From NCBI RefSeq assembly GCF_031157255.1, contig NZ_JAVIFX010000045.1, positions 1 to 47,296 of the forward strand: 47,296 nt of DNA, given 5' to 3'. The notes beneath the pieces are model-generated. The model was not told the origin of the DNA and ran no database searches. It saw nothing but the letters and a program-made list of their open reading frames with translations. Shown piece by piece: positions 6,337 to 16,764 of this stretch (position 1 is the first letter of the stretch; the number at the start of each line of letters is the position of its first letter). Both the position numbers and the translations under genes were made by a program. The stretch comes from Bradyrhizobium sp. LHD-71. GTDB taxonomy: Bacteria; Pseudomonadota; Alphaproteobacteria; Rhizobiales; Xanthobacteraceae.

Positions 6337-7923
6337 ATGGCAGATCGATTGACGCCGGCGCGGGCCACCGTGGCGATGCGGCGTCGTGGACTTTCCGTTG
6401 CAACCATGCTCGCGGCGACGGCCGCGTTGATGCCATCCGCCTTGATGCCATCTCCTGCCGGCGCCGCCCCGAAGCAGGCCGCCAGCGAGGCGACGGCGCC
6501 GCGCCATGCGGGCGAGCCGATCATGGCGATCGTGTCGATCAAGAGCCAGCAGGTGACGCTCTTCGACGCCGAGGGCTGGATCATGCGCGCGCCGGTGTCG
6601 ACCGGCACCAAGGGCCGCGAGACGCCGGCCGGCGTCTTCGCCCTGGTCGAGAAGAAAGAGGACCACCGCTCGAACATGTATGACGATGCCTGGATGCCGC
6701 ACATGCAGCGCATCACCTGGAACGGCATCGCGCTGCATGGCGGGCCGCTGCCGGGATATGCGGCGTCGCACGGCTGCGTGCGGATGCCCTTCGACTTTGC
6801 GGAACGGCTGTTCGACAAGACGCGGCTCGGGATGCGGGTGATCATCTCGCCGATCGACGCGGCACCGGTCGACTTTTCCCACCCGGCGCTGTTCGTGCCG
6901 AAGGCGGAAGCGCTCGCCGCCGTGCCGGCGCGTGCCGAGACGCTTTCGCGCGAAGCCGACGAGGCCGCGCGGGCCGCCGACGAGGCGAAGAAAGCCGCCG
7001 CGAAAGCGCCACGCGAGGCAGCAGCGCTGACCGCATCGCTGCGCAAGCTGGAGCGGCTGAAGGCCCGCGCCGACGCCGACCTCGCCGCAATCGACAAGGC
7101 GATCGCCGCCGCGAAGACGGACGAGGCCAGGGCGCAGGCCGAGGAGAAAAAGCAGAAGGCCGCCGCGAAGGCCGAGGAGCTGGCGACGCAGCTCGACGCC
7201 GCGAGGGGCGACACGAAGGCGAAGCTCGACGCCATCGCCGGCGCCAAGGAGGCCGCCAAAATGGCCGCGGCCAGGAAGACCGAGACGGCCAAGGCCGCGA
7301 CCGAGGCGAAGCTCGCGCTCGAGCCGGTGCAGGTCTACATCAGCCGCGCGACGCAGACGCTTTATGTGCGGCGCGCGACGCGCAAGCCGTGGCCGGACGG
7401 CGGTGAGGTGTTCGACGCGACGATCGAAGTGCCGGTGAAGATCCGCAATCCCGACCAGCCGATCGGCACGCATGTGTTCACGGCGATGGCGCAGCACGAC
7501 AAGGGCCTGCGCTGGAGCGCGGTGACGATCGACACCGGCGACAACGCCAAGAGCGCGCTCGACCGCATCACCATCCCGCAGGACCTGATCGACCGCATCG
7601 CGCCGACGGCCTTGCCGCGCTCCTCGATCATCGTCTCGGACGAGCCCTTGAGCACCGAGACCAACTATCGCACCGAGTTCGTCGCCGTGCTGAGCAACCA
7701 GCCCCAAGGCGGCTTCATCACGCGCAAGCCGACACCCGTTGCTCCCATGGAGAGCGACACCTGGGCCGACAACGGCTGGGGCAATGGCTGGGGCAACGGC
7801 GGCTGGGACAACCGAGGCTGGGGCAACGACAACGGCTTCTTCCAGCGCGACCCAGCCCCGAGACAACGACGCGGCGGCGCGGCGGGGCAGAACAGTTATC
7901 GGGGGGAACAGGGCTGGTGGTAG
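6337..7923 (+). CDS. L,D-transpeptidase (YkuD) with coiled coil and second degenerate domain
   Basis: This 528-residue exported protein has a signal peptide (to about residue 44) followed by a YkuD domain at about 60-180. The catalytic motif is HGG (His134) and SHGCVRM (Cys147, Arg149). From about 190 to 330 is a long Ala/Lys/Glu-rich coiled coil. Residues 330-460 resemble a second YkuD-like fold (VYISRATQTLYVRR…PIGTHVFTAM) without any catalytic cysteine. The tail is a Gly/Trp/Asn repeat (GWGNGWGNGGWDNRGWGN) ending in Trp-Trp. L,D-transpeptidases normally span 150-350 residues, so this one is enlarged, perhaps to reach across the periplasm or bind the wall. The start ATG follows ggggtgtgag. 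Confidence 0.9.
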   Translation: MADRLTPARATVAMRRRGLSVATMLAATAALMPSALMPSPAGAAPKQAASEATAPRHAGEPIMAIVSIKSQQVTLFDAEGWIMRAPVSTGTKGRETPAGVFALVEKKEDHRSNMYDDAWMPHMQRITWNGIALHGGPLPGYAASHGCVRMPFDFAERLFDKTRLGMRVIISPIDAAPVDFSHPALFVPKAEALAAVPARAETLSREADEAARAADEAKKAAAKAPREAAALTASLRKLERLKARADADLAAIDKAIAAAKTDEARAQAEEKKQKAAAKAEELATQLDAARGDTKAKLDAIAGAKEAAKMAAARKTETAKAATEAKLALEPVQVYISRATQTLYVRRATRKPWPDGGEVFDATIEVPVKIRNPDQPIGTHVFTAMAQHDKGLRWSAVTIDTGDNAKSALDRITIPQDLIDRIAPTALPRSSIIVSDEPLSTETNYRTEFVAVLSNQPQGGFITRKPTPVAPMESDTWADNGWGNGWGNGGWDNRGWGNDNGFFQRDPAPRQRRGGAAGQNSYRGEQGWW

Positions 7924-8163
7924 GGGCCGCGATATGCTGTGTGCTGATCGCGTGGCTGCGCAGAGGTATTTCCGAACCCCAATCACGAAACACGAAGTCC
8001 GCACTGCGACCGTGAGCGGACATTGACGGCATGTCAGCAACCTGAGATTCGACGTATGGAATTTCGGCAGCTTTGCGTAAACGGCAACGCCTCATCCTGC
8101 GCCGAGTAAACCTGAACTCGTTCAAAGCTGGCGTGACGCCGGTTAACGCGCACAAAGGAATTG

Positions 8164-8754: not shown

Positions 8755-9249
8755 TCACGACCGACTCTTTTGCTTTACCCACTTGGCATTCAGTTTGTGC
8801 AGATCCGAGTAGGTGTACTTATTCTTCGGGCGGGTAGCCAGGAAATCGAGCACCGGTTGTGCATCGCTATAGTTATTGGTCAGCGTGTCGCCCCAGTATG
8901 AGAAGCAGACTTTCGGATCGAGCACGTTCCGATCAATGCCAACAGCCACTAGCTCATGCACGTTCAGGTACTTTCGCACGTTAAGGTACTGCTCGCGGGA
9001 CGACGGACTGGTGCAAAATGTCTGCACATCTGGGGCCGCACGCATGGCGGCGATCCCCTCGTGAAACCTGTCAAAAGCGGTGATCATTTTCTCGTCAGTC
9101 TCGGTCTTCAAGAACAAATCGAAGGCTGCTCGCCGCCGCGCCGTCGCCCGCTGTACTCCTATCGAAATTAGCGCCGCAATGAACGCGCAGAGCGCGATAG
9201 TTGCCGTTAGCCACTGCGGGACGCTTCCCCAGTCGATCGTCTCACCCAT
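8755..9249 (-). CDS. DUF4760-like membrane-anchored protein
   Basis: This 164-residue protein has one N-terminal membrane segment (WLTATIALCAFIAALISIGV) followed by a soluble helical domain. The layout matches the DUF4760 family I recall: a TM helix, then a FDLFLKTETDEKM-like helix, YLNVHELVAVGI and CFSYWGDTLTN. The function is unknown; such proteins are frequent in mobile and defence-rich regions. The ATG at 9249 follows gaggggg. It lies 50 bp upstream of the broken SEC-C gene on the same strand, so the two may have been one transcript. Base composition is lower in GC than in the flanking chromosome. Confidence 0.75.
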   Translation of the reverse strand: MGETIDWGSVPQWLTATIALCAFIAALISIGVQRATARRRAAFDLFLKTETDEKMITAFDRFHEGIAAMRAAPDVQTFCTSPSSREQYLNVRKYLNVHELVAVGIDRNVLDPKVCFSYWGDTLTNNYSDAQPVLDFLATRPKNKYTYSDLHKLNAKWVKQKSRS

Positions 9250-9557: not shown

Positions 9558-11543
9558 TCACGCATCGCGACTCTTAATCGACCACACTCCGGATCCCTTA
9601 ATCTTTAGAGCGAATAGGTCCAAACCCGAAAATGCTTCGGAGTCGGATGAGTTCTCTTCCAAATTCTTCCTGACAAGCGACCTAAACGAAGCGGGCACTG
9701 ACCGGCCGCCCTTTTCTCTAAGCAAGTTCACAGCTCGATAGATTTCCTCAAGGTGAGCTTGGCCACCGAGTTGTACTAATGCCGTCCGCACATCTTCCCG
9801 CCAGGTTGCCTCCTCTGCAGCTGACGTGAAACCCGCAGAGCTCGCGTCAATCTGAACTCTGTCCGGGTCGTTGCCATCAAGCTCCCAGATATCGGCAAGC
9901 GTGGAAATAAGATAGGCCTGCCGAGTCTTCAAATACTCTGGGCTCCATGTCTCGGCCCGCAGCACCCCCTGCGTGACGACAAATGGAGACGTTCCGTCCT
10001 CCGTTGCGAAATAATTGATCTTCTTCTGCTCAAAATCCCAATTCGACGCCTTGGCATTTATTCGCCTAGTCAGGAGCACTAAGTTCGCGATCCGGTGCGT
10101 CCACAAAATGCGCTCCGCCTCGTCTGGGAACAAGTTCGCCCATTCCGACCCACTACTCACGGTCTGCGGGAGAACATGCTCTATCGACGCCTGCTCGTCA
10201 TAGCTCGCGCCCCCAGTTGAGAGCCGTTCGTCAAGCCGAAACAACACAGGTTTGCACACTCTCGTCTTTGTATACAGAGAGCCATCCAAGGCCTTGATGA
10301 ACTCAGTCTGCTCGACCCTAGAAAGCGCCAGCCCTACGGCAGAAATGGTTTGCCCGGCGGGCATGTCAATTTCGTTCATCACGCTGGCAAATCGTCGAAT
10401 TCGAGCGTTCACATCTGCCCTGGTCGTAAAAAGGAAATAGGCAACTCGCTCCAAATCGCAAAGCACCTTCGACACATGAGCAGCGTCATCACCCGCCTTC
10501 CACATCAACAACAGAGCAGGCGCTAGCCAGTCCTTGTTATCAATTCGCTCTAGCGAACGAAGAGCTGTCGCGGCCTTTACACCATACCTTTGCTTTACTG
10601 ATTGATTGCTGCTCAGCAATGCGATCGCGTCAGAAATTGGCTCCAGTATGTTTGAAATGAAGCGTTCGGCATCCTCGTTGAACGGCAGCACAAATTCCTT
10701 GAAGCCTTTTTCGAGAGAAATTCGAGGCTTGTCGCGCTCGAACATCATACGGATATGTCCGAATAGCTCGACCATCTTGTCTCGACCGATGCGCTGCTCA
10801 ACCGCTTCCCAGCGATCGGCTAAACTTATCTCTTGGGATGGCGCACCTCGCTCAAGAAGATCTGCCTTCAAAATGTCCGTCGGAGTGAGATCTAGACCGC
10901 GTGCGTTCAGGACAGTGAAGATTCTCCGCGCGGCCTCAGGTGTCGGGACAGCTACAGCAACAACAAAGCAATGCTGTATGATAAAGGCGATCAACGCGTT
11001 ACGCCGGTCTTCAGGGATAGTCGATAGCGTTGTGCGGAAATGACGAGCATTCTCTATGATGCGCGCATGGCTACCTGTCAGAGTGCTAGGGTCAGGAAGC
11101 TTATTGGTCGCATCCGGCAGTTGGATATGGTTCGAGAAGAACGGCTGGTCTTTGGGCCTCAATGTAAGCCGATAGCGTTCTTCGGTACCGTTGTCCGGAT
11201 TCGCCCTCTGAAAAACGTAGTTTCGCCGGCTGAGGCGTGCCTCATCGTTCTCTGTCAGATCTCGCAAGACGCTCAACAAGATAGTGAGCGTCGTCAATCT
11301 TTGCTGGCCGTCCACAACTTTCGAAAGAGGCGCCGAGGGCTGCTTGATTAGAACAATGCTCCCCAGAAAGCACATGCCCCCACTCGTCTTGGAGTTCTCC
11401 ATTGCGTAGATGAGATCAGTAAGAAGCTCATCCGCCTGCTCCTTTTCCCATGCATAGGGACGCTGATAAGAAGGTATCTCGAACGAAAATGAATCGCTAA
11501 AGAGCTGACCGATCGTCCGCTCGTGCGCCTCTATTGAGGTCAT
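9558..11543 (-). CDS. GmrSD-type (DUF262 + DUF1524) restriction-like protein
   Basis: This is a 661-residue single-chain protein of the GmrSD family, whose members cleave modified (for example glucosylated) phage DNA in a nucleotide-dependent way. The N-terminal DUF262 domain shows IPSYQRPYAWE (about 23-33) and the ParB-like nucleotide/catalytic motif DGQQRLTT (78-85). The DUF1524 HNH-like domain at about 450-515 shows SIEHVLPQT, HRIANLVLL and NWDFEQKK. The last ~75 residues look like a winged helix (LGGQAHLEEIYRAV … DLFALKIKGSGVWSI) as found fused to restriction enzymes. ATG 11543 is chosen because family members begin close to AHERTIGQLF; a TTG at 11555 is an alternative. It is divergent from the methyltransferase operon. 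Confidence 0.9.
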   Translation of the reverse strand: MTSIEAHERTIGQLFSDSFSFEIPSYQRPYAWEKEQADELLTDLIYAMENSKTSGGMCFLGSIVLIKQPSAPLSKVVDGQQRLTTLTILLSVLRDLTENDEARLSRRNYVFQRANPDNGTEERYRLTLRPKDQPFFSNHIQLPDATNKLPDPSTLTGSHARIIENARHFRTTLSTIPEDRRNALIAFIIQHCFVVAVAVPTPEAARRIFTVLNARGLDLTPTDILKADLLERGAPSQEISLADRWEAVEQRIGRDKMVELFGHIRMMFERDKPRISLEKGFKEFVLPFNEDAERFISNILEPISDAIALLSSNQSVKQRYGVKAATALRSLERIDNKDWLAPALLLMWKAGDDAAHVSKVLCDLERVAYFLFTTRADVNARIRRFASVMNEIDMPAGQTISAVGLALSRVEQTEFIKALDGSLYTKTRVCKPVLFRLDERLSTGGASYDEQASIEHVLPQTVSSGSEWANLFPDEAERILWTHRIANLVLLTRRINAKASNWDFEQKKINYFATEDGTSPFVVTQGVLRAETWSPEYLKTRQAYLISTLADIWELDGNDPDRVQIDASSAGFTSAAEEATWREDVRTALVQLGGQAHLEEIYRAVNLLREKGGRSVPASFRSLVRKNLEENSSDSEAFSGLDLFALKIKGSGVWSIKSRDA

Positions 11544-11735
11544 TACAGCGCTCAAGACGCCCCCCAGATACTATTTCTCAGTTTGAAGCGGTGAGAACGC
11601 CGTTCGCGCTAGCCTACCGGCTTCGTGAGGATAGTTGCAATATTTCGTTGCCTTTGAAGAACTCTCCGTATCTCTTACCTCCAATGCAAGTTCAACCGAT
11701 TCGAATTGCCGATCCGAGGTGTGTCAAGGGGCCAA
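11544..11735. promoter_or_regulatory. Divergent control region of the island
   Basis: About 190 bp separates the starts of the leftward GmrSD gene and the rightward four-gene operon, so both must be driven from here. The sequence is less GC-rich than the flanking chromosome. A Shine-Dalgarno aagggg (about 11727-11732) precedes the methyltransferase ATG. No clear operator palindrome was seen. Confidence 0.45.
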
Positions 11736-12596
11736 ATGCGTGACGATCTCCAATCAGTTTCGGACGCGGATAAAGGCTCAGCAACGATAAAGCCCATTTT
11801 GCGATGGGCGGGAAGTAAGCAGCGGTCCCTACCAAACATCGCACCATACCTTCCTACCGGTTGGGATCGATACATTGAGGCGTTTGCCGGATCCGCTTGC
11901 CTGTTCTTTCATCTCGATCCCGACCAAGCAATTTTGGTCGACAATAATGTTGATCTAATGCGATTCTACGGCATAGCGAAGGAAAGACCGAAAAGCGTTT
12001 TCCAGACCTTTCGCCGATTGCCGCGCGATTCGGATACATACTATCGTGTACGTTCGGCAATGAATGATGAAACCGATCCCGTTAAACGGGCAGCTTACTT
12101 CCTCTACCTGAATCGCAACTGCTTTAACGGAATTTATCGCACGAACAACAAGGGCGAGTTCAACGTTCCCTTCTCCGGCAGTCGTGTCGCGAAATATCAG
12201 TCTGAGGCGAACTTCATCGCCGCCATCAAGGTTCTCAATAAGGCAGTACTGCAGTGCAGGGACTTTGAGAACGTTTGCAGCAAGCAAGTCAGGCGAGGAG
12301 ACTTTATCTATTTGGACCCTCCTTACTACATGCCAAGAAAACGCATCTTTCGAGAGTACTCGTCTGAACCATTCTCTAAAGCTGATGTAGGACGACTAGA
12401 GCAAACTCTTCGACGAATTGATCGAGCTGGAGCAACATTCCTTCTCAGCTATCCCGACTGCGCGATCTCTAAACGTTTGGCGGCATCTTGGAACAAGAAG
12501 CGGATAAACGTTCGCCGAACAGTCGCTGGAAACGTCGCCGCGCGAGGCGCTACCAAAGAGCTTCTGATATTTAACTACGATCCTTGTTATGCCTAG
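11736..12596 (+). CDS. D12-class (Dam-like) adenine-N6 DNA methyltransferase
   Basis: This 286-residue enzyme would transfer methyl from SAM to N6 of adenine in a short DNA site. In order it shows PILRWAGSKQR (motif X, about 20-30), FAGSACLFF (motif I, SAM binding, about 50-58), the D12-class NRNCFNGIYRTNNKGEFNVPF-like region, and the catalytic DPPY (194-197). The length fits the Dam/DpnM group. The ATG at 11736 follows aagggg; a TTG at 11706 would add ten residues. It is the first gene of an operon whose next gene starts 8 bp before its stop. Inferred role: self-marking for the system encoded downstream. A stand-alone orphan Dam is the alternative. Confidence 0.92.
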   Translation: MRDDLQSVSDADKGSATIKPILRWAGSKQRSLPNIAPYLPTGWDRYIEAFAGSACLFFHLDPDQAILVDNNVDLMRFYGIAKERPKSVFQTFRRLPRDSDTYYRVRSAMNDETDPVKRAAYFLYLNRNCFNGIYRTNNKGEFNVPFSGSRVAKYQSEANFIAAIKVLNKAVLQCRDFENVCSKQVRRGDFIYLDPPYYMPRKRIFREYSSEPFSKADVGRLEQTLRRIDRAGATFLLSYPDCAISKRLAASWNKKRINVRRTVAGNVAARGATKELLIFNYDPCYA

Positions 12597-13806
12597 CTTT
12601 CGTATCTTGGTACTGGGCGATCCGCATATGCATCAGGGCAAACCGCTCGGATCCGCCCCTTCATACCTAAGCTCGCTTCCAAACTACAACGCCCCCAAGC
12701 TAAGTCCGATCCGTGACGCGGCCGACTTGATGATATCTCAGGGCGTTAAGATCGATTGGATCATATGCCCCGGAGACATCTCAAATCAGAACGACACCGT
12801 CTCAGCAGGGGTCGCTTGGAGCCAACTCGATGCGATGCGCAAACGACTTAGGGCACGAAAGCTGATTGGCAATGTCGGCAACCATGATCTGGATTCAAGA
12901 CGTAACGACGCCTCTTTTCGGCCCGACGAAGCGTTGAAATCTCTAGTGCCTTCGTTTCCTCTCTCTGACAAGAAGCTGGCTAGCCGATTTTGGGCACAGG
13001 ACTACGTCGTCGTCAAAGAGACATCTCATCAAGCCACGCTTGTTTTGGTCAATAGCTGCGCTCTTCACGGCACGGCTGTGAAGAGAGGAAAGGAGGCGTC
13101 TCATGAACACGGCCATGTTAGCACTACGGTCATTCAGAAACTAAGCGCAGAGCTATCGAGCAAACTGTCCTCTCTGAACGTGCTCGTAATGCATCATCAC
13201 ATTAGACAGCATCCGTGGCAGCCAGACGATCACAGTCACGCAGAAAATGGCCCGCTATTGTTAGAGGCGCTTGCAAATACGGGCGTCCGGTGGCTCGTCA
13301 TTCATGGCCATCAGCACTTACCCGACCTGAACTATGCGAACGCCGATAAAGCTGCTCCGATCATCCTGTCAGCAGGGAGTATCGCAGGGAACAGATTTGA
13401 AGTCCAAGGAAGGACGCCCAGAAACCAGATGCACCTAATCGAGTTTGATCAGATAGGTAATTTTCGCGCCCGCATTTACACGTGGAATTGGGCTCCGGCT
13501 ATCGGATGGACTGCTTCGTTCCCTGACTCAGGTCTTCCCAAGCTATGTGGCTTCGGTGACCAGCTCGGCACGCAATCGCTTCGTGACCAAATCAATGCCC
13601 GCATTTCGAGCCAAGCGACCAGACGACTGAAATGGGACGACTTGATTGAGATCATTCCCGACGTTCAGTTTCTTGTGCCGAGCGAGTTGAAACACCTGAT
13701 TGAGCTGCTCGAGAACTCCGGGACGATAGTCCACTACGATAAGTGGTTGTTGCCTAGCCTCTTTGATCGAGGAAACGAAATCGATGGCGCCGCAATCGCT
13801 GTTTGA
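12589..13806 (+). CDS. Calcineurin-like metallophosphoesterase
   Basis: This 405-residue protein carries the full two-metal set of the calcineurin-like phosphoesterase superfamily: D11-x-H13, GD (62-63), GNHD (97-100), an HHH block (202-204) and HGHQH (239-243). The superfamily includes nucleases (Mre11/SbcD), cyclic-nucleotide phosphodiesterases and protein phosphatases. The family alone does not give the substrate. About 110 residues after the catalytic core form an extension of unknown fold. Its ATG overlaps the methyltransferase end by 8 bp and its stop overlaps the ATPase start by 23 bp, so translation of all three is probably coupled. In this setting a nuclease or nucleotide-clearing role is inferred. 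Confidence 0.88.
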   Translation: MPSFRILVLGDPHMHQGKPLGSAPSYLSSLPNYNAPKLSPIRDAADLMISQGVKIDWIICPGDISNQNDTVSAGVAWSQLDAMRKRLRARKLIGNVGNHDLDSRRNDASFRPDEALKSLVPSFPLSDKKLASRFWAQDYVVVKETSHQATLVLVNSCALHGTAVKRGKEASHEHGHVSTTVIQKLSAELSSKLSSLNVLVMHHHIRQHPWQPDDHSHAENGPLLLEALANTGVRWLVIHGHQHLPDLNYANADKAAPIILSAGSIAGNRFEVQGRTPRNQMHLIEFDQIGNFRARIYTWNWAPAIGWTASFPDSGLPKLCGFGDQLGTQSLRDQINARISSQATRRLKWDDLIEIIPDVQFLVPSELKHLIELLENSGTIVHYDKWLLPSLFDRGNEIDGAAIAV

Positions 13807-15778
13807 ATCCTTCAATGCTCGCTCACTAGAGCCTGAGCAGGTAGGCCGCGGATTCATATTTTCGCCTGCTTTCGTCGACGTCGCAGCTCGGTCGAACTCA
13901 GTAGTACTTGGCCCTCGAGGGAGCGGAAAGACGACGCTTCTGAAGATGCTGACCTTACCGGCTCTTCGCAATTGGTGGCCACGCGACAAAAGCAGAGAAG
14001 TCCAGCGGTTGATGACCGATCTCGATTTCGTTTCAATCTATGTCCCGTCCGACTTCACGTGGTACCCAGACTTTAGGCGTCCGATAAAGACGCAGCCTCC
14101 GAAGGACACGGACGACTTATTGAGTTATTCGCTGTTTCGAAGTCATGTCCTCCTCGCGATTTGCGACACCATCTCCTATATGGAAGACCCTTCTCTTAAA
14201 GATGATCGGCATCTAGCGAGGTTTGTAATACCACGTGACGAAGTCCTTGGAGACAAGGCATCGAAGCTACTTGCGTCCGGATGGGGACTATCCCTACAAG
14301 TCGGTGGCTATTACGGCCTAAGAAGCGCGGTGACGAATAGGGTTCGCGCTATCCAGCATCTACTTACGGTGACGGCAATGAAGCCGCTAGATGCAGATAG
14401 GTTGATTGAAGATCATCCGCACCTTTCCGCGACGTTCTTCGACGATCTGAGGGAATTCGGGGATGTATTTGAACACATCTATGGTCGGCGCCAAAAATGG
14501 GCGGCCTGTTTTGATGAGCTCGAAATAGCTCCTGACCCCGTTAAAATTCCCATTTGGCAGAGCGGTCGATCGTTTGATCCACGTTTTCTGATTAAGATTT
14601 CCGCTAGTCCATATGATGGGAGCCTTACGGAGTTACTCCAGCCGCAGATGCCTATGGTAGCTCATGATTTCTTGGAGGTCGATCTATCATCGCAAGCTCG
14701 CCGCGAAGTCGATCGGTTTAGCCAACGGATGTTCACCAAGTTATGTAACGAGGTCGGGATTAGCCCAATCAAGGCGGAGCACCTACTTGGACCTTCATTC
14801 TATGATGATGGCTTTGATCCTGATGTCGATCGACCGTCGAACGTTACCAGCGCATCATTGCAGCGTTCAGTCCGCCGTGGACGGGGAGCCAGACTTGCAC
14901 CTGACGGATTCTACAATAGGAAATTCAGAGGACTTGCGCGCAAGGATTCGAGTTTCTTGCGCTATCTAGCGAAGCATAACATCAATCCGGAAGGGATGGC
15001 AGCGCTGCCCGAATTCCAAAAAGCGTCGCTGATACGAAAAATTATATCTACGGTTATTGTGCGAGATGAGTTTCTGTTTCAGCATCAGACGCAGAACAGC
15101 GAGGCTGGGCGTTCAAGGCGCTTCCGAGCGAAAAAATCAGTATCCCGTATCTATACCGGCGCATTCTCTTTGTTTACGCTTTGCGAAGGCAATCCTCGCT
15201 GGATCATTGGGCTTTTTCGCCCACTTATTGCTGACCTTGTCCAGATGCGAGATGTTTCAGCCGTCAAAGCAATTAGCAGAACTGAGCAAACGAAGCGTAT
15301 TGAACGAACAATCGCAACGTTCTTAACTTTGCTTTCGACATTAAGATCGAGCCATCGTGGTCAGTCCGCAAAATCCATAATTGAGCTGGTCGAGCAACTC
15401 GGTGACTTTTGCTTTGAACAGGTGCTTGGGCAAGATTTCAATCCGGAGCCAATACTATCTTTCACTATCGACAGAAATGTCGGGAAGGACGTTTATAGCG
15501 CTGTAGGCCGCGCGATCAATCAAGGCGCCTTAGTATTGGTTCCTCAGAAAGGGCTCCGGCGGGGCGATCCCGAAGCGGCGTCGTCAGCGCCTGGAAATAT
15601 TTGGGGCAAGAGAGTGCGGTTGTCATTCTTACTGGCTCCTCGGTACAGGCTTCCGCTTGTCCTTGGTCGTTCAGTCGATCTTTCGCCGGTGCTGAGATCA
15701 AATCCGCCTATTGCAACTCCATCCGAGCAATTGATACTCGGCGATCTATTCAGCACGGGCGAGAGAACCCTCATATGA
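13784..15778 (+). CDS. ORC/CDC6-like P-loop ATPase
   Basis: This 664-residue protein opens with NARSLEPEQVGRGFIFSPAF, then a Walker A (VLGPRGSGKTTLLK, about 41-54). An acidic Walker B-like segment (FDELEIAPDP) lies near 243-252. The N-terminal architecture resembles the 'ORC-CDC6 family AAA ATPase' proteins I recall from bacterial defence-type operons. It has no transmembrane segment. The C-terminal half is unrecognised. ATG 13784 follows gaggaaa and overlaps the phosphoesterase gene by 23 bp; its TGA overlaps the next ATG as ATGA. Likely role (inferred): nucleotide-driven sensor or DNA-loading motor of the operon. The catalytic glutamate is plausible but not proven by reading alone. Confidence 0.8.
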   Translation: MAPQSLFESFNARSLEPEQVGRGFIFSPAFVDVAARSNSVVLGPRGSGKTTLLKMLTLPALRNWWPRDKSREVQRLMTDLDFVSIYVPSDFTWYPDFRRPIKTQPPKDTDDLLSYSLFRSHVLLAICDTISYMEDPSLKDDRHLARFVIPRDEVLGDKASKLLASGWGLSLQVGGYYGLRSAVTNRVRAIQHLLTVTAMKPLDADRLIEDHPHLSATFFDDLREFGDVFEHIYGRRQKWAACFDELEIAPDPVKIPIWQSGRSFDPRFLIKISASPYDGSLTELLQPQMPMVAHDFLEVDLSSQARREVDRFSQRMFTKLCNEVGISPIKAEHLLGPSFYDDGFDPDVDRPSNVTSASLQRSVRRGRGARLAPDGFYNRKFRGLARKDSSFLRYLAKHNINPEGMAALPEFQKASLIRKIISTVIVRDEFLFQHQTQNSEAGRSRRFRAKKSVSRIYTGAFSLFTLCEGNPRWIIGLFRPLIADLVQMRDVSAVKAISRTEQTKRIERTIATFLTLLSTLRSSHRGQSAKSIIELVEQLGDFCFEQVLGQDFNPEPILSFTIDRNVGKDVYSAVGRAINQGALVLVPQKGLRRGDPEAASSAPGNIWGKRVRLSFLLAPRYRLPLVLGRSVDLSPVLRSNPPIATPSEQLILGDLFSTGERTLI

Positions 15779-16764
15779 TCTCGCACAGTAGCGTCTACAC
15801 ATTTGAGGACAACAAGACACATCGTTTTGATGTCTTCATCAATTCGATTGGATACGAAGAACGTGCAGCAGCTTTGGTAAGGGCCGGTCGAGTTTCTGCT
15901 GATTGCTTCATTAGCTTGTCGTTCGAAGAAAATGAGGTGCTTAGCTTCGCCGAGAATAAGAAGGTAATGGATCGCATGTCTGCGCTTATCGTGACAGATG
16001 TATCCGACTTCTTCCGTACAAAATTTCGGTCGTTGATCTTCGAAAAATACACGATCGCCAGCCGCTCCCTGTCAGTAGGGATCGATGTCTCGTCGATGAA
16101 TAGAACGATGTCCGCGCTTGCCCTCTCCACGATGTTTGCTTGCAAGGATTATATAGGCGAATTCGAAATACTGTACGTACCCGCAAAGTTTTCTGAGCCT
16201 ACTCTGACGTTTACTCCGATCGATCAAGTTGGAGCGGTTACTCCAGAACTCTCTGGCTTCGATTCGGAGCCAGCGCTGCCAGTGGCCTTGATATTAGGGC
16301 TAGGTTATGAGTACGGAACGGCGGTCGGTTTGATAAACCAGCTCGAGCCAAATTTCACCTTGTGCCTTCGAGCCACCGGTGGCGACGAAAAATATGCCGA
16401 AGCTGTTCGTGCGGCGAATCTTCAGTTCGATTTCAATCCCTACAATGTAGAGATCACAGAATACGAACTTTTCGATGTGAAGGCCGCATATGAACACATT
16501 GAGAATATAGTGTACTCGTTGGTGACGTCGTATCGCGTTGTTCTGGTCCCTATGGGTCCAAAGATACTTGCGGCGCTTCTTGTCCTAATTTCCCTGAAAT
16601 ACTTTGGAAGAGTTGCCGTGTGGCGAGTTGCGCGCCCGGGTCAGGCCGGACAAGTGATCCCGGAGAAGGCTTATATGGGCGCACATGTTAGAACTATCGA
16701 TGCAATTAGCGAAAAGAATACCCGTTTGCTTCGGGAAATGCTTGAAATGGGACAACTATCTTAG
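15775..16764 (+). CDS. Unrecognised protein with two Rossmann-like repeats
   Basis: I do not recognise this 329-residue protein as a named family. It starts in an ATGA overlap with the ATPase, so it is made with it. The two halves look alike: SIGYEERAAALV in the first and GLGYEYGTAVGLI in the second. Each is followed by an alternating strand/helix pattern and closes with IDVSSMNRTMSALALS or VPMGPKILAALLVLISL. This topology recalls CARF-like sensor domains, whose TGG-K/R-M turn precedes a helix, but the match is only by eye. There is no signal peptide or TM segment. A reading frame continues upstream to 15601, but only within the ATPase gene. Possible roles: ligand sensor or effector of the operon. 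Confidence 0.75.
   Translation: MISHSSVYTFEDNKTHRFDVFINSIGYEERAAALVRAGRVSADCFISLSFEENEVLSFAENKKVMDRMSALIVTDVSDFFRTKFRSLIFEKYTIASRSLSVGIDVSSMNRTMSALALSTMFACKDYIGEFEILYVPAKFSEPTLTFTPIDQVGAVTPELSGFDSEPALPVALILGLGYEYGTAVGLINQLEPNFTLCLRATGGDEKYAEAVRAANLQFDFNPYNVEITEYELFDVKAAYEHIENIVYSLVTSYRVVLVPMGPKILAALLVLISLKYFGRVAVWRVARPGQAGQVIPEKAYMGAHVRTIDAISEKNTRLLREMLEMGQLS

What the first reader, a model, noticed from the sequence alone, without database searches (positions are those of the whole stretch)
11736..16764. Four-gene overlapping operon: adenine methyltransferase, phosphoesterase, ORC/CDC6-like ATPase and an unknown protein
The four genes overlap by 8 bp, 23 bp and an ATGA, so they are almost certainly one translational unit. 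A D12 methyltransferase (DPPY), a complete calcineurin-like metal site, a P-loop ATPase of ORC/CDC6 type and an unrecognised two-fold protein together do not match any R-M, BREX, DISARM or Zorya/Druantia type I can name. The gene content suggests a modification-based defence: the methyltransferase marks self, the ATPase senses or loads, the phosphoesterase cuts DNA or clears a nucleotide, and the fourth protein senses or executes. Placement beside a GmrSD restriction gene in a lower-GC island supports defence. The mechanism is inference.
Basis: partly seen in the sequence, partly recalled or inferred. Interest (0 to 1): 0.9.

Follow-up and report, generated by a model that had tools for sequence, protein, structure and literature searches.

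The report
DNA-mark-gated bacterial defence operon
Four overlapping genes encode what looks like an anti-virus system that spares DNA carrying a methyl mark and otherwise fires a degrading enzyme; relatives that lack the marking gene were found almost only in bacteria that already mark their own DNA in the same way.

Summary
11736-16764 holds four overlapping genes: Dam-family methyltransferase, calcineurin-like phosphoesterase with a wHTH tail, ORC/CDC6-like ATPase, and a fourth protein that is CARF/SAVED-like rather than unknown. The phosphoesterase-ATPase-CARF trio is complete and in order in 65 of 70 genome loci found through the ATPase (four of the other five are cut by contig ends), in eight phylum-level groups. 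New result: of 16 trios with no methyltransferase beside them and a scanned genome, 15 lie in genomes with a GATC-type Dam elsewhere (14 E. coli-type, one DpnM-like); the exception is a 1.3-Mb metagenome bin. Of 48 genomes whose operon carries a full Dam, none has another that strong. Six loci found after the rule was noticed all fit. So adenine methylation, probably at GATC, looks like the required self mark, and housekeeping Dam can replace the operon's enzyme. Sister loci put PRTase-CE or HD-CE in the effector slot, which favours nucleotide destruction over DNA cutting. The CARF ligand is unexplained: 0 of 49 host genomes have Csm1, 6 a SMODS cyclase. The parts are named in Pfam/PADLOC, so this is a variant of a catalogued, untested class. 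There are no phage data.

The parts
11736..12596 (+). gene 1: Dam-family D12 N6-adenine DNA methyltransferase, probably GATC-specific
   Evidence: PF02086 6.9e-44, TIGR00571 218 bits over its 114.85 cut-off, nearest solved proteins DpnM 5.6e-44 and E. coli Dam 2.8e-30
12589..13806 (+). gene 2: calcineurin-like phosphoesterase with C-terminal wHTH (predicted effector)
   Evidence: PF00149 2.1e-9, PF24408 1.5e-10; metal site invariant in 69 of 69
13546..13716 (+). wHTH-Calcineurin_assc domain of gene 2 (residues 320-376)
   Evidence: PF24408; 54 of 69 relatives match it
13784..15778 (+). gene 3: ORC/CDC6-like P-loop ATPase
   Evidence: PF24389 2.1e-92, 69 of 69 relatives; model nearest to BrxC, RdrA, ORC/Cdc6 at low TM-score
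15775..16764 (+). gene 4: two Rossmann-like halves, CARF/SAVED-like predicted nucleotide sensor
   Evidence: PADLOC CARF6 1.1e-41, 69 of 69 relatives; AlphaFold2 model pLDDT 88.1; Foldseek hits to Csm6, Cap5, Cam1, Csa3 among unrelated ones

Best explanation
A modification-gated immune operon. The Dam-family enzyme methylates the cell's own DNA, probably at GATC. The ORC/CDC6-like ATPase together with the CARF/SAVED-like protein reads DNA and stays silent while the mark is present. DNA without the mark (incoming phage DNA, or phage DNA replicating faster than Dam can follow) switches the complex on, directly or through a nucleotide bound by the CARF protein, and the phosphoesterase then acts, more likely on nucleotides than on DNA, and stops the infection. 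The marking enzyme is exchangeable: a housekeeping Dam or a DpnM-like methyltransferase elsewhere can supply the mark, and the operon copy is then missing. Shown by computation: the conserved trio, the invariant active sites, the complementarity with genomic Dam, the exchangeable effector slot. Inferred: the GATC target, trigger, ligand, substrate, and defence itself.
For: Trio in order in 65 of 70 genome loci. Of 16 trios with no methyltransferase beside them and a scanned genome, 15 have a Dam above 180 bits elsewhere; 0 of 48 with a full in-operon Dam do. Six loci found after the rule was noticed fit it, 6 of 6. Independent pairs on the trio tree: 5 of 5, 6 of 6 with L094. In three of four host genomes looked at, the host Dam stands in a cluster that reads by eye as aroK-aroB-damX-dam-rpe. 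Gene 1 is nearest to DpnM and E. coli Dam. Sister loci keep ATPase and CARF but carry PRTase-CE or HD-CE, with C5 or N6/N4 methylases. DS-8 and DS-9 show metallophosphatases essential in phage defence (PMC13092281, section 7).
Against: No phage or biochemical data. L070 has no Dam end in its 382 readable upstream bases and no Dam in its genome bin, which is only 1.3 Mb. Counting L070, a mean of 4.8 of 5 pairs agree; without L094 no version reaches p 0.05. The 180-bit line was set after seeing scores. Most Dam-lacking trios are in Vibrio/Alteromonas-type hosts, nearly all of which may have Dam anyway. Seven genomes with in-operon Dam have weaker further Dam-family hits (42-145 bits). The phosphoesterase profile also matches Mre11/SbcD. 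The CARF ligand has no known source.
Confidence: 0.55

Rival explanations
1. A restriction-modification system with an unusual nuclease: the ATPase loads the phosphoesterase (Mre11/SbcD-like, with its wHTH) on DNA lacking the mark, and it cuts that DNA; the CARF protein is a regulator.
For: The methyltransferase association; PDB profile hits to Mre11/SbcD at 2.8e-4; wHTH domain in 54 of 69.
Against: LMO2642 (3e-17), Rv0805 and other cyclic-nucleotide-type enzymes score better; the same slot holds PRTase-CE or HD-CE in sister loci, neither of them a known nuclease family by name; a CARF protein is not expected in plain restriction.
Confidence: 0.22
2. The link with host Dam is a taxonomic coincidence: trio lineages that settled in Vibrio/Alteromonas-type hosts happened to lose a methyltransferase with another role, and those hosts all have Dam.
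For: Most Dam-lacking trios are in such hosts; tree-corrected support is thin (p 0.0625; 0.031 only with L094).
Against: At least 5 separate changes on the tree; gammaproteobacterial trios in genomes without another strong Dam keep theirs (L055, L056, L078, L089, L091, L097, L110, L133); L053 (Acidobacteriota) and L094 (Bacteroidota) lack it and have DpnM-like enzymes instead.
Confidence: 0.13
3. A selfish addiction or maintenance module, or a replication-control module: the trio harms cells that lose the methyltransferase or whose GATC sites are under-methylated, and phage defence is not its main role.
For: 5 plasmid records carry it, two of them beside repC; ORC/CDC6-like fold; a methylation-dependent executioner would behave like an addictive restriction-modification unit (established for R-M, recalled).
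Against: Most loci come from chromosome-sized contigs; rare and scattered: 6 of 394, 3 of 295, 2 of 293 and 1 of 369 genomes in overlapping samples, centre genomes included; exchangeable effectors; flanking genes include restriction and other defence families.
Confidence: 0.1

Closest known systems
CE-effector conflict systems (Calcineurin-CE, HD-CE, PRTase-CE), as I recall from Nicastro et al. 2023, NAR gkad879; paper not held, seen only as a cited reference
   Same: Pfam ORC-CDC6-like, wHTH-Calcineurin_assc, PRTase-CE and HD-CE families occur in these loci
   Different: Whether that paper lists this quartet, or its exchange with host Dam, could not be read
Type II restriction-modification (DpnII type)
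   Same: Dam-family methyltransferase as likely self mark; nearest solved relative is DpnM
   Different: No restriction endonuclease gene in the operon; ATPase, CARF and phosphoesterase instead
BREX
   Same: Methyltransferase plus an ATPase whose model is nearest to BrxC
   Different: No PglZ or BrxX among the four proteins
DS-8 and DS-9 (DefensePredictor, PMC13092281)
   Same: Metallophosphatase needed for defence; DS-8 couples it to a P-loop NTPase
   Different: Gene 2 scores 45.4 bits against the DS-9 cut-off of 420; no methyltransferase or CARF is described for them in the section read
CARF/SAVED sensors of type III CRISPR and CBASS
   Same: Fold of gene 4
   Different: No cyclase in the operon; Csm1 in 0 of 49 and SMODS in 6 of 49 host genomes; no effector domain fused to it

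Membership tests
CE-effector conflict systems (calcineurin / ORC-CDC6-like branch) | phosphoesterase with the calcineurin-associated wHTH | tested here: met
   PF00149 and PF24408 over cut-off; 63 and 54 of 69 relatives match
CE-effector conflict systems (calcineurin / ORC-CDC6-like branch) | ORC-CDC6-like ATPase in the same operon | tested here: met
   PF24389 2.1e-92; order conserved
CE-effector conflict systems (calcineurin / ORC-CDC6-like branch) | effector destroys nucleotides | not testable with these tools
   needs biochemistry; the family's definition itself is recalled
CARF superfamily | CARF sequence profile | tested here: met
   PADLOC CARF6 in 69 of 69 members
CARF superfamily | CARF fold | tested here: met
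   Foldseek: Csm6, Cap5, Cam1, Csa3 with probability near 1, but low TM-scores and unrelated hits between them, a KCC transporter at rank 1
CARF superfamily | binds a cyclic oligonucleotide | not testable with these tools
   no cyclase in the operon; make CRISPR or CBASS supply unlikely as a general rule (Cmr2-type Cas10 was not scanned)
Type II restriction-modification | cognate restriction endonuclease beside the methyltransferase | tested here: not met
   no endonuclease family among the four proteins
Type II restriction-modification | executioner lives only with a matching methyltransferase in the genome | tested here: inconclusive
   15 of 16 and 48 of 48, but thin after correction for kinship
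BREX | PglZ and a BrxX/PglX methyltransferase | tested here: not met
   not found in the four proteins by Pfam or PADLOC
DS-9 anti-phage system | metallophosphatase over the NF053862 cut-off plus HAD phosphatase | tested here: not met
   45.4 bits against 420; no HAD gene in the operon
Dam-family GATC methyltransferase (gene 1) | Dam subfamily profile and conserved hairpin residues | tested here: met
   TIGR00571 218 bits; N131, G132, R135, N143 in 50 of 50 in-operon enzymes; that these read GATC is recalled
Dam-family GATC methyltransferase (gene 1) | methylates GATC | not testable with these tools
   needs a methylome

The most novel reading that the evidence does not exclude
The trio is an immune sensor that reads adenine methylation as self without needing its own methyltransferase: it can use a bacterium's housekeeping Dam mark or a DpnM-type mark, and answers unmethylated or under-methylated replicating DNA by destroying nucleotides, gated by a CARF/SAVED protein whose ligand comes from no known cyclase. 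That would be a modular class (exchangeable mark enzyme, fixed ATPase-CARF reader, exchangeable nucleotide-destroying effector) lying between restriction-modification and abortive infection.
Probability: 0.4. Interest if true: 0.85.

Novelty: new variant of a known kind. Interest (0 to 1): 0.65.

Why it matters
If true, a housekeeping epigenetic mark (Dam) serves as the self tag of a mobile immune system. It predicts that dam becomes essential in trio carriers and that phages may be caught by how fast their DNA is methylated rather than by sequence. It gives a simple test (put the trio in dam+ and dam- laboratory strains), separates the mark from the executioner, and poses a clean question: what does a CARF/SAVED protein sense when no known cyclase is around?

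Tried and rejected
Plain nuclease R-M, taxonomic coincidence and an addiction or replication role were weighed and kept as lower rivals. Supply of the CARF protein by type III CRISPR or CBASS was rejected as a general explanation. A first Cas10 scan with PF22335 was uninformative: 25 of 49 genomes matched and 12 were over the cut-off by short partial matches, and the E. coli control rang too, probably GGDEF cross-hits. Phage collection: no relative of gene 3. Viral contigs: one weak hit, not used. E. coli genomes: no blastn match to a Vibrio trio. A scan of 369 gammaproteobacteria found only the centre genome again. PDB search with the gene 4 profile: only a designed protein at E 0.049; with gene 3: mostly P-loop matches. 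Flanking genes: 124 of 128 listed were scanned; the answers give counts for the first 25 of 175 (PADLOC) and of 147 (Pfam) families only, so the share of flanks with a defence hit is unknown, and no random-locus control was run. Of the 14 other genomes in the window's order with PF24389 over its cut-off, regions of 9 were read.

Rows set aside before the Dam count: L031, L032, L034 (plasmid records, host genomes not scanned); L087, L101, L111 (Dam just outside the operon); L046, L047, L050 (another D12 methyltransferase in the operon); L094 (counted only); L052 (first filed as lacking Dam; one search showed the end of a Dam gene, 2.3e-17, cut by the contig end); L088, L106, L112-L114 (incomplete); L033 (same record as L071); L035 (near copy of L032); L039 (distant). 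L070 was at first set aside as cut upstream and is now counted as the one exception, because L073, with similarly short upstream sequence, was counted. L112 has a Dam fragment before a partial ATPase and no phosphoesterase: degraded, or an assembly fault.

Literature: searches listed no paper that I could see describing this quartet. The papers most likely to do so are not held, so absence from print is not claimed. Seen: PMC13092281 passages and section 7; PMC12839542 passages; PMC7159879 passages; PMC7824862 passages; PMC12265719 passages; all others as search listings only.
Full report
1. What is there. Four + strand genes overlap at 11736-12596, 12589-13806, 13784-15778 and 15775-16764 (overlaps 8, 23 and 4 bp) in a lower-GC stretch at 8-17 kb. 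Gene 1 is a Dam-family methyltransferase (PF02086 6.9e-44; TIGR00571 218 bits), nearest among solved proteins to DpnM and E. coli Dam. Gene 2 is a calcineurin-like phosphoesterase with a C-terminal wHTH (PF00149, PF24408). Gene 3 is an ORC-CDC6-like ATPase (PF24389 2.1e-92). Gene 4 has no Pfam match over cut-off but matches PADLOC CARF6 models at 1.1e-41. A GmrSD gene (9558-11555, -) and a DUF4760 gene (8755-9249, -) lie beside them.

2. A conserved unit. In the plasmid collection genes 3 and 4 each hit the same 5 records; all 5 have phosphoesterase-ATPase-CARF in order, and 4 have Dam directly upstream, while the Pseudoalteromonas one has there a 614-aa protein without a Pfam match. A pattern-limited scan of one genome for each of 84,980 species with the gene 3 alignment gave 70 loci; by record titles they span Pseudomonadota, Bacteroidota, Actinomycetota, Acidobacteriota, Planctomycetota, Verrucomicrobiota, Gemmatimonadota and SAR324. 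With profiles of the four genes, 65 of 70 hold the whole trio in order on one strand; L088, L106, L113 and L114 are cut by contig ends and L112 is degraded or misassembled. In the 71 trio loci (window, 4 plasmid loci, L039 and the 65) neighbours overlap or lie within 20 bp in 49 of 50 (Dam to phosphoesterase), 70 of 71 and 69 of 71 cases. Starts were chosen to lie near the preceding stop, so these gaps are somewhat optimistic.

3. Active sites and folds. In 69 aligned members the phosphoesterase metal ligands and the main Walker A and B residues are invariant. In gene 4, D104, Y134, G177, G261 and K263 are invariant; in its model (pLDDT 88.1) they lie at or near strand ends of two Rossmann-like halves. 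Foldseek hits to the PDB include Csm6, CBASS Cap5 (SAVED), Cam1 and Csa3 with probability near 1, but at low TM-scores and mixed with unrelated hits, a KCC transporter ranking first. The gene 3 model (pLDDT 87.8) is nearest to BrxC, RADAR RdrA and ORC/Cdc6, again at low TM.

4. The methyltransferase is missing where the genome has another. On the tree of 75 trios a full Dam is directly upstream in 50 and the end of one, cut by the contig, in L052; another D12 methyltransferase is in the operon in 3 (L046, L047, L050; PF02086 7.4e-12 for L046; the other two form one clade with it); Dam or a DpnM-like gene stands nearby but outside the operon in 4 (L087, L094, L101, L111); none is seen in 17. 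One of the 17, L034, is a plasmid whose host was not scanned. The other 16 genomes were scanned with the E. coli Dam model NF008152. Fifteen have a Dam elsewhere: L049 333, L073 400, L090 436, L092 397, L093 408, L098 379, L099 399, L102 447, L104 433 bits; G518, G593, G607, G774, G830 383-419 bits; L053 191 bits. The sixteenth, L070, has no Dam end in its 382 upstream bases and none in its genome, a 1.3-Mb metagenome bin; its trio is almost the same as that of L073, whose genome has Dam. L073 and L104 also have short upstream sequence (495 and 641 bases) without a Dam end. Of 48 scanned genomes with a full in-operon Dam (46, the window's and G1144), none has another Dam-family gene above 180 bits; six of the 46, and L052's genome, have weaker further hits (42-145 bits), G356 being the least clear (145 and 125 bits).

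5. How strong is that. Fisher's test on 15 of 16 against 0 of 48 gives 1e-13 but ignores kinship. On the trio tree the Dam-less state needs at least 5 changes. Independent pairs: 5 of 5 the same way (p 0.0625, L070 left out); 6 of 6 with L094, added after the first result (p 0.031); with L070 as a miss a mean of 4.8 of 5 (p 0.0625-0.125). The 180-bit line was set after seeing the scores. In favour: six loci found after the rule was noticed all fit, five Dam+ hosts with Dam-less trios and one host without another Dam whose operon has it. In three of four host genomes looked at, Dam stands in what reads by eye as the aroK-aroB-damX-dam-rpe cluster. L053's and L094's genomes have DpnM-like enzymes (290 and 255 bits to M.DpnII), each beside a gene that looks like the same family by eye.

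6. What it means. With L070 as the only miss, every trio whose genome was scanned was found together with a Dam-family or other D12 methyltransferase. That is what self-protection by methylation predicts, and it argues against a trio that attacks methylated sites. The stretch N131, G132, R135, N143 of Dam is invariant in 50 of 50 in-operon enzymes and shared with the three host-type Dams that aligned there (the fourth was read only in part). That it is the GATC-reading hairpin is recalled.

7. The effector. The phosphoesterase profile is closest to LMO2642 and Rv0805, then SMPDL3A and Mre11/SbcD. In PF24389 loci of the window's own order ATPase and CARF are kept while the third slot holds PRTase-CE (L036, L037, L040) or HD-CE (L038), with C5 methylases (L038, L040) or an N6/N4 methylase (L036) beside them; L043 has DruA and L042's partner has no match. 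The CE names come, as I recall, from Nicastro et al. 2023, who proposed nucleotide-degrading effectors; I could not open it and saw it cited, with one sentence on phosphoesterases depleting NTP pools (PMC12839542 passages; PMC12265719 passages). DefensePredictor (PMC13092281, section 7) reports DS-8 (metallophosphatase-NACHT) and DS-9 (metallophosphatase plus HAD) as anti-phage, with catalytic residues needed. So I favour nucleotide destruction over DNA cutting, without proof. A further hint, purely inference: phages of Dam+ hosts arrive already methylated, so a reader of this mark would be useful there mainly when phage replication outruns Dam.

8. The open part. CARF and SAVED proteins read cyclic oligonucleotides where studied (recalled). 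Here no cyclase is in the operon; Csm1 is in 0 of 49 host genomes and a SMODS cyclase in 6 of 49 (49 of the host genomes were scanned, and Cmr2 was not). The ligand, if any, must come from elsewhere, perhaps from the trio or the nucleotide pool.

9. Novelty. The parts are catalogued and the neighbourhood may be listed by Nicastro et al.; among the papers I could search I saw no tested system of this make-up. The exchange of the mark enzyme with housekeeping Dam appeared in none of the listings or passages I saw. I rate it a new variant of a known kind.

Noticed in passing
window 9558-11555 (-) and 8755-9249 (-): GmrSD-type gene (PF03235 + PF07510; best PADLOC label Orf5, then HEC-06) and a DUF4760 gene in the same low-GC stretch.
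   Followed up: partly
window 7001-8000: Strong AT skew (0.335) at high GC (0.684), just before the low-GC stretch; not explained.
   Followed up: no
L034 4898-6742: 614-aa protein directly upstream of the trio on a Pseudoalteromonas plasmid, in the place of Dam, with no Pfam or NCBIfam match.
   Followed up: partly
L094 2644-3930 (-) and L134 6547-7929 (+): Genes that look alike by eye, each beside a DpnM-like methyltransferase: perhaps a restriction enzyme family; the L094 one has no useful PDB match and no NCBIfam match.
   Followed up: partly
L043 6142-11156 (-): ATPase and CARF genes of this kind beside a DruA (Druantia) gene.
   Followed up: no
L031 11475-14947 (-): CHAT-domain gene beside another metallophosphoesterase, next to the trio on a Methylobacterium plasmid.
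   Followed up: no
L086 11783-12655 (+): A second phosphoesterase-like ORF (6e-36) directly after the trio in Pedobacter.
   Followed up: no
L111 11875-14163 (-): DGQHR/DpdB-like gene between the trio and its nearby Dam.
   Followed up: no
L129-L132: A deep, divergent branch of the trio in Dam+ gammaproteobacteria (204-227 bits to the gene 3 profile).
   Followed up: partly
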